Shown here: positions 33,591 through 39,045 of the stretch, one piece after another
Numbering within the stretch: position 1 is the first letter of the stretch
Layout: every line of letters begins with the position of its first letter
Assembly: GCF_030814815.1 (NCBI RefSeq)
Contig: NZ_JAUSVR010000002.1
Location: 124,001-188,000 of the forward strand
From: Ancylobacter amanitiformis
GTDB lineage: Bacteria > Pseudomonadota > Alphaproteobacteria > Rhizobiales > Xanthobacteraceae
Direction of reading: 5' to 3'
DNA: 64,000 bases
The notes under the pieces: generated by a model
The model's input: the letters and a program-made list of their open reading frames with translations, nothing else
Database searches by the model: none
What the model was told of the DNA's origin: nothing
Position numbers and translations under genes: made by a program

Positions 33591-33639
33591 TTTCTTTGCA
33601 AGAAATTTTGTTGACACACCTCCGTCCCGATGCAAACAT
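33591..33639 (+). promoter_or_regulatory. Promoter with methylamine-regulon element, upstream of the GcvT-like gene
   Basis: TTTCTTTGCAAGAAA (33591-33605) is followed after 5 bases by TTGACA (33611-33616) and 17 bases later by AAACAT, a weak -10. The same element-5 bp-TTGACA layout occurs on the minus strand before tmm (38853 down to 38828), with 13 of 15 element bases identical. The weak -10 suggests an activated promoter. Confidence 0.65.
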
Positions 33640-33753
33640 TCCCGGCGTTGAGGGCGCTGGCGGGGCATGTCCTTGCCTGGAAGTCGCCCGGCATTTCCTG
33701 TTCAGTTTCGTATTCCGCACCCCGGACTTCGTCGAGCGAAGGTTTCATCAGAT

Positions 33754-34881
33754 ATGACCGCCGCATTCCCTCGCAATTCTATTCTAAACGAGCGGCATAT
33801 CCAGCTCGGGACCAAGTTCGAATCGTCCTGGAACGGCATGCCGCTGCCGCAATTCTATTCGACCGATCCCTATGACGAGGTCGCCACCATTCGCTCGCGC
33901 GCGGGGCTGATCGATGTGTCGTCGCTCAATCTGGCGAACGTCAAGGGCAAGGACGCCGTCGCTCTGCTCAACGAGGTGCTGACCTCGGATATCGCCGGGA
34001 TGAAGCCGGGCCAGTCGGCCATCAGCAATATCGTCGACGATAACGGCTCGCTGATCGACGACGTGCTGGTCTATTGCAACGGCGCCGATGATTTCCGGCT
34101 CTCGCACGGCTCCGGCAAGCTGGAGGAGGTGCTGGCGCAGTTCAGCGCCGGGCGCGACGTGTCGGTCGCCAATGACGGGGACACCCATGTCTTGTCCTTG
34201 CAGGGCCCGCGGGCGCTGGACATTCTCAAGCCGCATGCCTCGATCGACCTGACGACGCTGAAATATTTCGAACATGCTCCGGCGACCCTGTTCGGCCGCG
34301 CGGTAACGCTGGCGCGCGGCGGCTATTCGGCCGAGCGCGGCTATGAAGTGTTCAGCGCGGCGGCCGATACCGTGTTCCTCTGGGATTCCATCCTGGAGGC
34401 CGGCGCGCCCTATGGCGCCATGCCGGTGTCCTGGCAGAGCCTCGACATCGTCCGCGTGGAGGGGGCGCTGCTGTTCTTTCCCTATGACATGCCCAAGGGC
34501 GACGAGACCCCCTGGGAAGTCGGCGCGGACTGGACGGTGGATCTCGACAAGCCGTCCTTCCGCGGCAGGGAGGCCCTCATCCGCCGCAAGGGCGAGGCGC
34601 GCGTCGTGCAGCGCGGCATGGAGATCGACCATCACGAGCAGATCGAGCCGGGCGCCAGGCTGTTCAAGGACGGCAAGGACGTCGGCTCGCTGAACTCGTC
34701 CATCTATAGCCGGCACCTGATGCGCTCCATCGCGCTGGTGCATGTTCTGCCCGAGTTCGGGGCGTTCGGTACGGAATTCGAGGTGGTGGGCCCGCAGGGC
34801 ACGTTCACCGGCCGGCTGGTCAAGACCCCGTTCTACGATCCGCTGCGCCTGCGCACCCATCCGCTCGACGAGCGGGGCTGA
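33754..34881 (+). CDS. GcvT-like folate-binding aminomethyltransferase (possible DmmD)
   Basis: This 375-residue protein belongs to the GcvT/aminomethyltransferase family. Visible features are YDEVATIRSRAGLIDVSSL near residue 45, SAISNIVDDNGSLIDDVLVY, LSLQGPRALDIL, GYSAERGYEVF and FRGREALIRRK. Such proteins bind tetrahydrofolate and pick up C1 units. A GcvT-like protein, DmmD, accompanies dimethylamine monooxygenase in marine bacteria and this gene is a candidate equivalent, though it lies on the other side of tdm-tmm from dmmABC. The ATG at 33754 is preferred over the more upstream in-frame ATG at 33667. Its promoter element matches that of tmm. Confidence 0.8.
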   Translation: MTAAFPRNSILNERHIQLGTKFESSWNGMPLPQFYSTDPYDEVATIRSRAGLIDVSSLNLANVKGKDAVALLNEVLTSDIAGMKPGQSAISNIVDDNGSLIDDVLVYCNGADDFRLSHGSGKLEEVLAQFSAGRDVSVANDGDTHVLSLQGPRALDILKPHASIDLTTLKYFEHAPATLFGRAVTLARGGYSAERGYEVFSAAADTVFLWDSILEAGAPYGAMPVSWQSLDIVRVEGALLFFPYDMPKGDETPWEVGADWTVDLDKPSFRGREALIRRKGEARVVQRGMEIDHHEQIEPGARLFKDGKDVGSLNSSIYSRHLMRSIALVHVLPEFGAFGTEFEVVGPQGTFTGRLVKTPFYDPLRLRTHPLDERG

Positions 34882-34892
34882 GGTTTCCCTTT

Positions 34893-37328: not shown

Positions 37329-37354
37329 CATGTCTCTCCCGCCGCTGCAGCGTC

Positions 37355-38713
37355 CTACTCGGCCGCGACGGCCGCAGGATTGATGAAGGCCTCGAAGGAA
37401 TCGTCCAGCGCCTCCAGCCATTTGGTGTGGTGCGGCGGCGCCATGTTGCCGGTCATGATCGAGGTGTAGGAATTGTCGCGATAGCCCATGATGTCACGCT
37501 CCTTGTCGTGTTCCCACACCTTGAACAGCGCGGCGACGGCGTCGAGGTCGAACATGGGATAGTCGGTGGCCGGGATCAGCTCCTTCATGTAGTCGGTCTG
37601 GAAGTCGATCGCGTCGAAGGCGGTCTCGATCGTGCCTTCCTTTTCCAGCCAGCGGGCGATGTCGGCGGCGATTGTCTCATCGGCGGGCAGGGCGATGCGG
37701 CCGAGAATGATGTCGCGCACGTACCAGGCCTGCGCGTCGAACATGTTGAACGTGTAATACTGGTCCTGCATGCCGAGATAGAACAGCTTGTGGTTGTTCT
37801 CCCAGACCACGCCCTTGTAGAGATCGGGCGGGTTCATGCGGTTGGCGCTCTTGAGGCGCATGTCGTCGGGCAGGAACGGGTAGTGGTGGAGATAGCCGGT
37901 GCACAGGATCACCGCGTCCACCTCGGCCGTCGAGCCGTCGATGAAATGGGCGACGCGCCCGTCCAGCTTTTCCAGCAAGGGCTTCTCGGTGAAGCAGCTC
38001 GGCCATTTGAAGTTGGAGCGGCGGGTGCGGTAGCTGAAGGTGATCGACTTGGCGCCGTACTTGTAGCACTGGCTGGCGATATCCTCGGCCGAATAGGACG
38101 AGCCGACGATGAGCAGGTCCTTGCCGACGAACTCGTCCGCCGCGCGGAAGTCATGGGCGTGCATCACGCGGCCGGGGAACATCTCGATGCCGGGGAAATG
38201 CGGCACGTTCGGCGTCGAGAAATGCCCGGAGGCGACCACGACATAGTCGAAAACCTCCGAATAGAGCGCGTCCTTGACGTTGTCCTTCACCGTCAGGGTG
38301 AATTTGCCGGTCTCCTCGGAATAGTCGACCCAGCGCACCGGCGAGTTGAAGCGCACATGCGCGCGCAGCCCCGCCTTCTCGACGCGGCCCATGATATAGT
38401 CGTGCAGCACGGCGCGGGGCGGATAGGACGGGATCGGCTGGCCGAAATGCTCCTCGAACGTGTAGTCGGAGAATTCGAGGCACTCTTTCGGGCCGTTGGA
38501 CCAGAGATAGCGGTACATGGAGCCATGGACCGGCTCGCCATACTGGTCGAGGCCGGTGCGCCATGTATAGTTCCAGATGCCGCCCCAGTCGGACTGCTTC
38601 TCGAAGCAGACGAATTCGGGAACCTCGGCCCCCTTCTGGTGCGCGGATTGGAAGGCTCGAAGCATGGCCATGCCCGAGGGGCCGGCACCGATAATGGCGA
38701 CGCGGATGCTCAT
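37355..38713 (-). CDS. tmm: Trimethylamine monooxygenase Tmm
   Basis: This 452-residue flavin monooxygenase has the FAD motif GAGPSG (residues 9-14), the FMO-type [12 protein letters not shown] fingerprint, the NADPH motif [11 protein letters not shown], and [10 protein letters not shown] near the C-terminal third. Bacterial FMOs of this length and pattern oxidise TMA to TMAO with NADPH and oxygen. Position directly upstream of tdm and near dmmABC and tmoXWV supports Tmm over other FMOs. The promoter region carries the shared element and TTGACA box on the minus strand. Confidence 0.92.
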
Positions 38714-39045
38714 GTGCGTGTTCCCTTAGGTCCTGATAGGCCGGCTGCAAGGTGCCTGATCGCGGCCACCCTCAAGGGGAAACCCGTCCGTCCGGCTTTA
38801 CGCAAAGCCTCGCCGATATTTCTTGTTTGTCAAGTTAGTTTCCTGCAAAGAATTTGACACCCAGCTCGCCCTTGTCTTTGGCAGCACGCTCAAACAATGG
38901 GCATTCGAAGTTCTTGACGGCCAAAGTTTCCTGCTGGACACTTCATTTTATCGAAGAGAAACATTTGAGTGTCGGCGAGGGGTCTGCTTTCCCAGGCAGC
39001 CGTCCGGCTGGACACTCGATGGAACGGCCTCCAGAGACCGCACGC
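38714..39045. other. Divergent tmm / dmmA promoter region
   Basis: This 332-base region is AT-richer than its neighbours between 38810 and 38975. It carries the shared regulatory element at 38839-38853 flanked by a TTGACA on each strand, and a further partial copy (TTTCCTGC then GGACAC, about 38928-38941). No gene is seen; the open frame into dmmA from 38854 is upstream noise. Confidence 0.6.
38828..38859. promoter_or_regulatory. Shared methylamine-regulon element with TTGACA on both sides
   Basis: On the minus strand, ATTCTTTGCAGGAAA (38853-38839) is followed after 5 bases by TTGACA (38833-38828), directed at tmm-tdm. On the plus strand TTGACA at 38854-38859 directly abuts the element, directed at dmmABC. 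The same element and spacing occur at 33591-33616. No strong -10 is seen for either direction, which fits activator-dependent transcription. Confidence 0.65.

What the first reader, a model, noticed from the sequence alone, without database searches (positions are those of the whole stretch)
33591..38859. Shared 15-bp element placed exactly 5 bp before TTGACA at two methylamine promoters
TTTCTTTGCAAGAAA at 33591-33605 and ATTCTTTGCAGGAAA on the minus strand at 38853-38839 agree at 13 of 15 bases, and each is followed by exactly 5 bases and TTGACA. The first drives the GcvT-like gene and the second tmm-tdm. The second site also abuts a TTGACA on the other strand facing dmmABC. Both promoters lack a good -10. 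This points to one activator coordinating TMA, TMAO and DMA breakdown. The XRE-cupin protein at 41711 is the nearest candidate. I know of no described operator for this pathway with this sequence.
Basis: partly seen in the sequence, partly recalled or inferred. Interest (0 to 1): 0.72.

Follow-up and report, generated by a model that had tools for sequence, protein, structure and literature searches.

The report
Shared switch for methylamine-eating genes
A short mirror-image DNA word sits at a fixed distance from the start signals of several methylamine-breakdown genes in this bacterium and in a range of relatives, and the protein most likely to read it is a small regulator often encoded next to one of those genes.

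Summary
In detail: both 15-mers lie exactly 5 bp before TTGACA. What is conserved is a palindrome, TTC-N7-GAA, with its TTC 19 bp before TTGAC. It is kept at tmm and the gcvT-like gene in 5 of 5 Ancylobacter, and at some tmm, gcvT-like or dmmA genes of Chthonobacter, Methylocella, Jiella and others. The TTTGC core varies, which refutes my own sigma-54 reading. The same palindrome, one helical turn further out, precedes mgsA (methylamine pathway): 29 of 43 promoters, other spacings 0-9. A matrix trained on other genera ranks the two reported sites first and second in the window. The likely reader is an XRE-cupin protein: its gene lies within 450 bp of mgsA in 19 of 23 genomes, and a relaxed form of the site is present in 22 of 24 genomes with it against 1 of 9 without. 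One shared regulator is thus supported by inference. Activation is likely but unproven: studied Pseudomonas XRE-cupins repress, and the dmm-side sites sit where a repressor would. The TTGACA facing dmm is not conserved. My literature searches found no such operator.

The parts
33591..33605 (+). Operator before the gcvT-like gene, TTTCTTTGCAAGAAA (TTC-N7-GAA)
   Evidence: best-scoring 15-mer of the window with a matrix from other genera (23.7 bits)
33611..33616 (+). -35 box TTGACA of the gcvT-like gene; TTC starts 19 bp upstream
   Evidence: kept 5 of 5 Ancylobacter, and in Chthonobacter and Methylocella (TTGACG in the latter)
33634..33639 (+). Proposed weak -10 (AAACAT) at 17-bp spacing, after a TG extension
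   Evidence: RARCWT at this place in 5 of 5 Ancylobacter; assignment inferred
33571..33585 (+). Conserved copy-like stretch (TTCATGCAGGAGAAA) 20-21 bp upstream of the operator
   Evidence: matrix score only 5.9
33754..34881 (+). GcvT-like gene (GCV_T, GCV_T_C)
35052..37331 (-). tdm, TMAO demethylase (NF053776, 1247 bits)
37355..38713 (-). tmm, trimethylamine monooxygenase (NF058570, 823 bits)
38839..38853 (-). Operator before tmm-tdm, ATTCTTTGCAGGAAA
   Evidence: second-best 15-mer of the window (20.3 bits)
38828..38833 (-). -35 box TTGACA of tmm-tdm
   Evidence: kept 5 of 5 Ancylobacter
38805..38810 (-). Proposed weak -10 (AGGCTT) of tmm-tdm at 17-bp spacing
   Evidence: AGGCTT in 5 of 5 Ancylobacter; assignment inferred
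38914..38919 (+). Conserved TTGACG facing dmmABC, candidate -35
   Evidence: CTTGACGG in 5 of 5 Ancylobacter
38927..38941 (+). Conserved half-degenerate copy TTTCCTGCTGGACAC, 20 bp before the next one
   Evidence: conserved but matrix score -1.8
38947..38961 (+). Operator-like TTTATCGAAGAGAAA between tmm and dmmA
   Evidence: fourth-best of the window (18.5 bits); 14.4-19.8 in the other four Ancylobacter
39043..39651 (+). dmmA
   Evidence: PF22289/PF22290 and NF041259
39648..40604 (+). dmm reductase-like subunit (Fer2)
40621..41703 (+). dmm haem-dependent oxidative N-demethylase-like subunit
   Evidence: PF11927
41711..42466 (+). XRE-cupin regulator, proposed reader of the operator
   Evidence: HTH_3 45.9 bits; cupin 26.5 bits, just under the 27.2 cut-off; relatives in 14 of 14 genomes tested
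42532..42546 (+). Operator-like TTGCCTACCAAGAAA before the TMAO/betaine-type transporter gene
   Evidence: 13.9 bits here (sixth of the window), 16.7-17.1 in the other four Ancylobacter
42552..42566 (+). Second copy GTTCCTGCGGGGACA, 20 bp on, as at mgsA
   Evidence: tandem kept 5 of 5; weak score 5.0
42610..43560 (+). TmoX-like substrate-binding protein (OpuAC); TmoX name by context
43657..44739 (+). Transporter ATPase (betaine/proline/choline type)
   Evidence: TIGR01186
44736..46727 (+). Transporter permease, two permease stretches in one protein
   Evidence: TIGR03416

Best explanation
The element is the binding site (operator) of an XRE-cupin transcription factor that controls methylated-amine breakdown. 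A dimer reads the palindrome WTTCYTNNNRRGAAW. At tmm-tdm and the gcvT-like gene it sits just upstream of a good -35 and a poor -10, centred near -49, and most likely recruits or assists RNA polymerase when the cupin domain senses a pathway compound. At mgsA (methylamine) two copies 20 bp apart lie one helical turn further out, the second running into the -35; the transporter promoter has a similar tandem pair. Shown by comparison: the operator, its fixed spacing and its gene set. Inferred: that XRE-cupin binds it, and that it activates at tmm and gcvT-like. Not known: the ligand, and which of the two XRE-cupin copies acts.
For: Exact layout in 5 of 5 Ancylobacter at both genes. 19 sites with TTC 19 bp before TTGA, 9 of them outside Ancylobacter. 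After 41 Mesorhizobium-like loci were left out, the 6-bp gap to TTGA stands out: tmm 10 of 69, gcvT-like 7 of 13, dmmA 2 of 25, shuffle means 0.005-0.015, other gaps 0 or 1. TTC-N7-GAA in 29 of 43 mgsA promoters, other spacers 0-9; own mgsA carries it as the only exact match of its 29-bp layout in the genome. A matrix from 28 non-Ancylobacter sites ranks the two reported sites first and second of the window. A relaxed site (TTC-N7-[GT]AA) in 22 of 24 genomes with XRE-cupin, 1 of 9 without, p=3e-5; strict form 17 of 24 against 1 of 9, p=0.004; XRE-cupin within 450 bp of mgsA in 19 of 23.
Against: No binding or expression data. The Pseudomonas XRE-cupins studied are described as exclusive inhibitors (PMC7901475, passages). 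The dmm-side copies lie downstream of a candidate -35, a repressor-like place. The layout is absent from 59 of 69 tmm, 6 of 13 gcvT-like and 23 of 25 dmmA upstream regions, and for dmmA N7 is no more frequent than N11 or N12 (8 of 25 each). Over 397 genomes of the order the strict pattern gives 50 matches against 39 for its reversed control by my count, so the pattern alone is not specific. One genome has the site without a detected XRE-cupin (G558); 4 of 38 XRE-positive genomes lack even the relaxed site (G589, G433, two Jiella). The relaxed form was chosen after seeing TAA variants, and genomes are related, so p-values are too small. XRE-cupins of Mesorhizobium share the recognition-helix core, yet their tmm regions show a different palindrome. 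The matrix's third and fifth window hits (50081, 8011) lie outside the methylamine genes.
Confidence: 0.75

Rival explanations
1. The same XRE-cupin operator, but the protein is a repressor at all these promoters: bound next to or over the -35 it blocks polymerase, and a pathway compound releases it, as described for Pseudomonas XRE-cupins.
For: The Pseudomonas members characterised are inhibitors that bind core promoters (PMC7901475, passages). The second mgsA copy overlaps the -35, and mgsA promoters have a slightly better -10 (mean 2.44 of 6 TATAAT matches at 17 bp, against 2.11 for tmm/gcvT-like/dmmA). The dmm-side pairs lie inside the core promoter.
Against: At tmm, gcvT-like and permease promoters the site ends 6 bp short of the -35 and this distance recurs across genera; pure blocking does not require such phasing. 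The -10 boxes there are poor.
Confidence: 0.3
2. Another, unlinked regulator binds the operator and XRE-cupin is only a neighbour.
For: In this genome neither XRE-cupin gene is on the contig of mgsA. G558 has the site without a detected XRE-cupin. In Ruegeria pomeroyi an AraC-type activator (TmaR) and a GntR-type repressor (TmoR) run this pathway (PMC13390433; abstract, results and discussion read).
Against: Linkage in 19 of 23 and co-occurrence in 22 of 24 against 1 of 9 (relaxed site).
Confidence: 0.15
3. The 15-mers are the -12 part of sigma-54 promoters (AGGCGTTTTCTTTGCA, TGTCAAATTCTTTGCA), which would explain the missing -10.
For: GG-N10-GC fits at the gcvT-like gene; a sigma-54 activator gene lies at 46745-48859.
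Against: The TTTGC core and the GG are not kept in relatives, whereas TTC, GAA and TTGACA are.
Confidence: 0.03
4. Chance resemblance of two AT-rich patches.
For: Loose matches are frequent.
Against: Conservation, fixed spacing, ranking by a matrix from other genera.
Confidence: 0.01

Closest known systems
XRE-cupin regulators of Pseudomonas (ErfA, PsdR, PauR; PMC7901475, passages read)
   Same: HTH_3 domain plus a cupin-like domain, palindromic operator, metabolic targets often beside the regulator gene
   Different: There exclusive inhibitors, mostly one or two direct targets each, with unlike motifs; here one motif recurring across genera and several operons, with fixed phasing to the -35 that suggests activation at some promoters
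TmaR (AraC type) and TmoR (GntR type) of Ruegeria pomeroyi (PMC13390433; abstract, results, discussion and passages read, supplement not seen)
   Same: Coordinate control of tmm, tdm, dmm and gmaS-mgs
   Different: Different protein families; the words XRE, cupin, motif and palindrome do not occur in its main text
XRE-family gene in Rhodobacteraceae methylamine clusters (PMC7574528, passages read)
   Same: An XRE gene is listed among genes recurring in TMA/DMA/MMA clusters (figure legend)
   Different: Only named as a neighbour in the passages seen; no function or operator given there

Membership tests
XRE-cupin transcription factors (protein 41711-42466) | XRE-type helix-turn-helix domain | tested here: met
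   HTH_3 45.9 bits, cut-off 23
XRE-cupin transcription factors (protein 41711-42466) | C-terminal cupin domain | tested here: inconclusive
   Cupin_2 E 5e-6 but 26.5 bits, cut-off 27.2; residues 68-250 of 251 match 1y9q, an HTH_3 regulator (E 1.4e-7)
XRE-cupin transcription factors (protein 41711-42466) | Binds a palindromic operator near its target genes | tested here: inconclusive
   Palindrome and linkage shown; binding not testable here
XRE-cupin transcription factors (protein 41711-42466) | Represses its targets | not testable with these tools
   Needs expression data
Sigma-54 promoter at the gcvT-like gene and tmm | Invariant GG at -24 and GC at -12 | tested here: not met
   Not kept across 5 Ancylobacter at either gene
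Sigma-70-type promoter at the gcvT-like gene and tmm | Conserved -35 and -10 at about 17 bp | tested here: inconclusive
   -35 TTGACA kept 5 of 5; -10 weak but kept in place
TmaR/TmoR regulon of Ruegeria | AraC- or GntR-type regulator linked to the genes | not tested
   No TmaR or TmoR search was run; a QhpR-like AraC gene lies elsewhere in this genome

The most novel reading that the evidence does not exclude
[quoted passage not shown] It uses one operator set at different helical-turn steps from the -35: activating from -49 or -59/-39 at tmm, gcvT-like and mgsA, repressing from inside the core promoter at dmm. That would make it an XRE-cupin activator, unlike the exclusive inhibitors described in Pseudomonas.
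Probability: 0.35. Interest if true: 0.7.

Novelty: new member of a known kind. Interest (0 to 1): 0.58.

Why it matters
Methylated amines feed nitrogen and carbon to many soil and marine bacteria. Regulators of this pathway are described for Ruegeria (AraC and GntR types). A conserved operator gives a testable code for a different regulator in Hyphomicrobiales and other alphaproteobacteria, points to possible further pathway members such as permeases, and offers a clean case to ask whether an XRE-cupin protein can activate.

Tried and rejected
Sigma-54 reading of both promoters: attractive at first (GG-N10-GC at the gcvT-like gene), rejected because the core is not conserved. At the transporter gene TGGCCTR-N4-TTGCC is kept 5 of 5, but its TTGCC is also part of an operator-like copy, so sigma-54 there stays open.

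Pattern-first scan of 397 genomes of the order: 50 matches against 39 control matches (my count of the table), no clear overall excess. Of the 30 loci fetched from it (1.5 kb on each side), one lies before a TmoX-like gene (L194) and three before permeases (L195-L197; family search run for L195 and L197, L196 judged by sequence). None of the 30 matched the tmm, tdm, gcvT-like, dmm, XRE-cupin or mgsA queries; weak matches to the transporter ATPase (L179, L180, L193) and to the sigma-54 activator (L183) also appeared.

Mesorhizobium-type loci: 37 have XRE-cupin divergent from tmm; the 14 that I aligned show other palindromes (TTCAC-N5-GTGAA), not the TTC-N7-GAA layout. With this group included, tmm upstream regions show N6 in 42, N9 in 39 and N7 in 23 of 110. 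I then left out 41 loci by a hand-made list before the counts.

Most TTC-N7-GAA seen upstream have no TTGA close by: with a TTGAC or TTGAT 13-37 bp on there were 18 at 19 bp, 18 at 29-30, 2 at 14 (the tmm site seen from the dmm side), 1 at 15 and 1 at 23; 54 had none.

The matrix hit at 50081 (19.9 bits) lies before a propane-monooxygenase-like cluster and is probably unrelated; 8011 (13.9) was not followed. No operator-like site lies just before the XRE-cupin gene itself (best 6.6 bits). Other genome matches to WTTCYTNNNNRGAAW (14 places, 18 strand matches, control 3) include coding positions. mgsA is named from recall of the N-methylglutamate pathway; the library only calls it glutamine-amidotransferase-like. 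No structure was predicted.
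Full report
Observation. The whole 26-bp arrangement, with up to 3 mismatches, occurs twice in the window and never in 100 shuffles. In the 4.84-Mb genome TTC-N7-GAA-N6-TTGAC occurs exactly twice, here; with one mismatch allowed there are 20 matches against 22 for the reversed control.

Genes. Family models name tmm (37355-38713, minus), tdm (35052-37331, minus), dmmA (39043) with two further dmm-type subunits, an XRE-cupin regulator (41711) and a betaine-type transporter with an OpuAC binding protein (42610), TmoX-like by context. 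Loci retrieved with Tmm show the host is close to Ancylobacter (95-89% identity); four named Ancylobacter keep the gene order.

What is conserved. Aligned upstream regions of five Ancylobacter (window plus four) keep, at the gcvT-like gene, GTTTC-N6-AGAAATTT-YR-TTGACA followed at 17 bp by RARCWT; at tmm, TTCT-N5-GGAAACT-WA-CTTGACAA followed at 17 bp by AGGCTT. The inner TTTGC is variable. This removes a reading I had formed first, that the 15-mers are the -12 part of sigma-54 promoters. The TTGACA facing dmm is shared only with A. radicis.

Beyond the genus. In all 19 such sites were listed, 9 outside Ancylobacter. After leaving out 41 Mesorhizobium-like loci the layout is present in 10 of 69 tmm, 7 of 13 gcvT-like and 2 of 25 dmmA upstream regions, with shuffle means of 0.005 to 0.015; gaps other than 6 bp (0 to 19) gave 0 or 1. 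So it is far from universal at tmm. TTC-N7-GAA stands out from spacers 2 to 13 at tmm (18 of 69, others 2-8) and gcvT-like (10 of 13, others 0-4), but not at dmmA (8 of 25, as for N11 and N12).

A second gene set. XRE-cupin loci led to mgsA, the first gene of the methylamine pathway operon (name recalled; the library match is only glutamine-amidotransferase-like). In 150 bp upstream of 43 mgsA genes (15 genomes that I had picked for their tmm loci, own included, and 28 from a class-wide draw), TTC-N7-GAA is found in 29, other spacers from 0 to 15 in 0 to 9; GAA-N7-TTC in 26 shows a second copy 20 bp on. There TTGA lies 29 or 30 bp from the first TTC (25 sites when TTC-N7-TAA is allowed), 10-11 bp more than at tmm: one helical turn. 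This genome's mgsA has it, the only exact match of its 29-bp layout in the genome. Permease genes in five loci (L149, L150, L195, L196, L197) are preceded by the 19-bp layout; family searches were run for L150, L195 and L197. A TmoX-like gene in another genome (L194) has it too.

Test on the window. A symmetrised matrix from 28 sites of non-Ancylobacter genera ranks 33591 first and 38839 second of all 15-mers of the window. Third is 50081 (19.9), before a propane-monooxygenase-like cluster; fourth is 38947, conserved in the tmm-dmm gap; fifth is 8011 (13.9), outside the methylamine genes; sixth is 42532, before the transporter, where a 20-bp tandem is kept in 5 of 5. Thirty shuffled windows had a mean top score of 11.6 and a largest of 16.8, so 13.9 at 42532 alone is not outstanding; its support is conservation (16.7-17.1 in the relatives). 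The half-degenerate copy at 38927 scores -1.8.

Who reads it. Each of 14 genomes that I picked among the 80 Tmm loci has an XRE-cupin relative (best E at most 4e-60). In a class-wide draw of 241 genomes, 33 have mgsA, own included, and all 33 were examined: with XRE-cupin (24) 22 have TTC-N7-[GT]AA within 150 bp upstream of mgsA, without (9) one does (p = 3e-5); the strict TTC-N7-GAA gives 17 of 24 against 1 of 9 (p = 0.004); the relaxed site with TTG 16-17 bp on gives 20 of 24 against 1 of 9 (p = 0.0003). The relaxed form was chosen after seeing TAA variants, one relaxed hit (G620) is at -25 and may be chance, and relatedness is not corrected. With my 14 picked genomes added it is 34 of 38 against 1 of 9; the four without are G589, G433 and two Jiella. 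XRE-cupin lies within 450 bp of mgsA in 19 of 23 drawn genomes that have both. The recognition-helix core GM-x-SK (x = I, L, M or V) is shared by all 45 XRE-cupin segments aligned, including those of Mesorhizobium-type loci whose tmm regions show another palindrome, so the helix alone does not prove the site. In this genome neither XRE-cupin gene is beside mgsA.

How it works. A palindrome suggests a dimer. At tmm and gcvT-like the site centre is about 13 bp upstream of the -35, near -49 by inference, with a poor -10: a place for an activator. At mgsA the pair lies near -59 and -39, comparable in place to lambda CI at PRM (recalled). On the dmm side the pair lies downstream of a conserved TTGACG, as in Methylorubrum salsuginis (L016) where two copies follow TTGACA: a place for a repressor. 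The steps between the site positions are about multiples of a helical turn (my arithmetic). I therefore favour activation at tmm and gcvT-like, leave dmm open, and treat the sign as unproven.

Known work. In Ruegeria pomeroyi TmaR (AraC) and TmoR (GntR) control the pathway; XRE, cupin, palindrome and motif do not occur in the main text, and the supplement was not seen (PMC13390433). Pseudomonas XRE-cupins are described as inhibitors with palindromic motifs (PMC7901475, passages). An XRE gene is listed among neighbours of Rhodobacteraceae clusters (PMC7574528, passages). I found no paper with this operator in ten searches; methylamine with XRE and cupin gave 0 papers, and N-methylglutamate, methylamine and XRE family and trimethylamine, XRE family and dimethylamine each gave only PMC7574528. 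The library holds only open-licence papers, so this is not proof of absence.

Noticed in passing
window 33425-33535: A dispersed repeat of about 107 bp, with 59 matches reported in this genome (some are both strands of one place), ends 55-60 bp before the gcvT-like operator.
   Followed up: partly
window 46745-58614: GAF/sigma-54 activator gene divergent from an alcohol dehydrogenase, followed by a propane-2-monooxygenase-like cluster (MimD match) and a GroEL-like gene; sigma-54-like sites at 48801 and 50191.
   Followed up: partly
window 42521-42536: TGGCCTGACATTTGCC before the transporter is kept as TGGCCTR-N4-TTGCC in 5 of 5 Ancylobacter; sigma-54 promoter or overlap with the operator-like copy.
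   Followed up: partly
L043, L048, L054, L060, L067, upstream of TmoX-like genes: Strong sigma-54-like sites TGGCTYGCACCTTGCA in five of the seven Mesorhizobium-type loci checked.
   Followed up: no
L029, L033, L037, L043, L054, L060, L063, L070, L071, L072, L083, L086, L092, L093: tmm/XRE-cupin divergent regions: A different palindrome, TTCAC-N5-GTGAA, in the Mesorhizobium-type regions aligned (14 of 37), suggesting a changed operator or another regulator.
   Followed up: no
G000 contig C2:96615 (L285): TTTCCTGAGAGGAAT just before an amino-acid permease gene divergent from a QhpR-like AraC regulator, 27 kb outside the window.
   Followed up: partly
G000 contig C7:130580-131260: Second XRE-cupin paralogue, 58% identical, not on the contig of mgsA in this genome.
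   Followed up: partly
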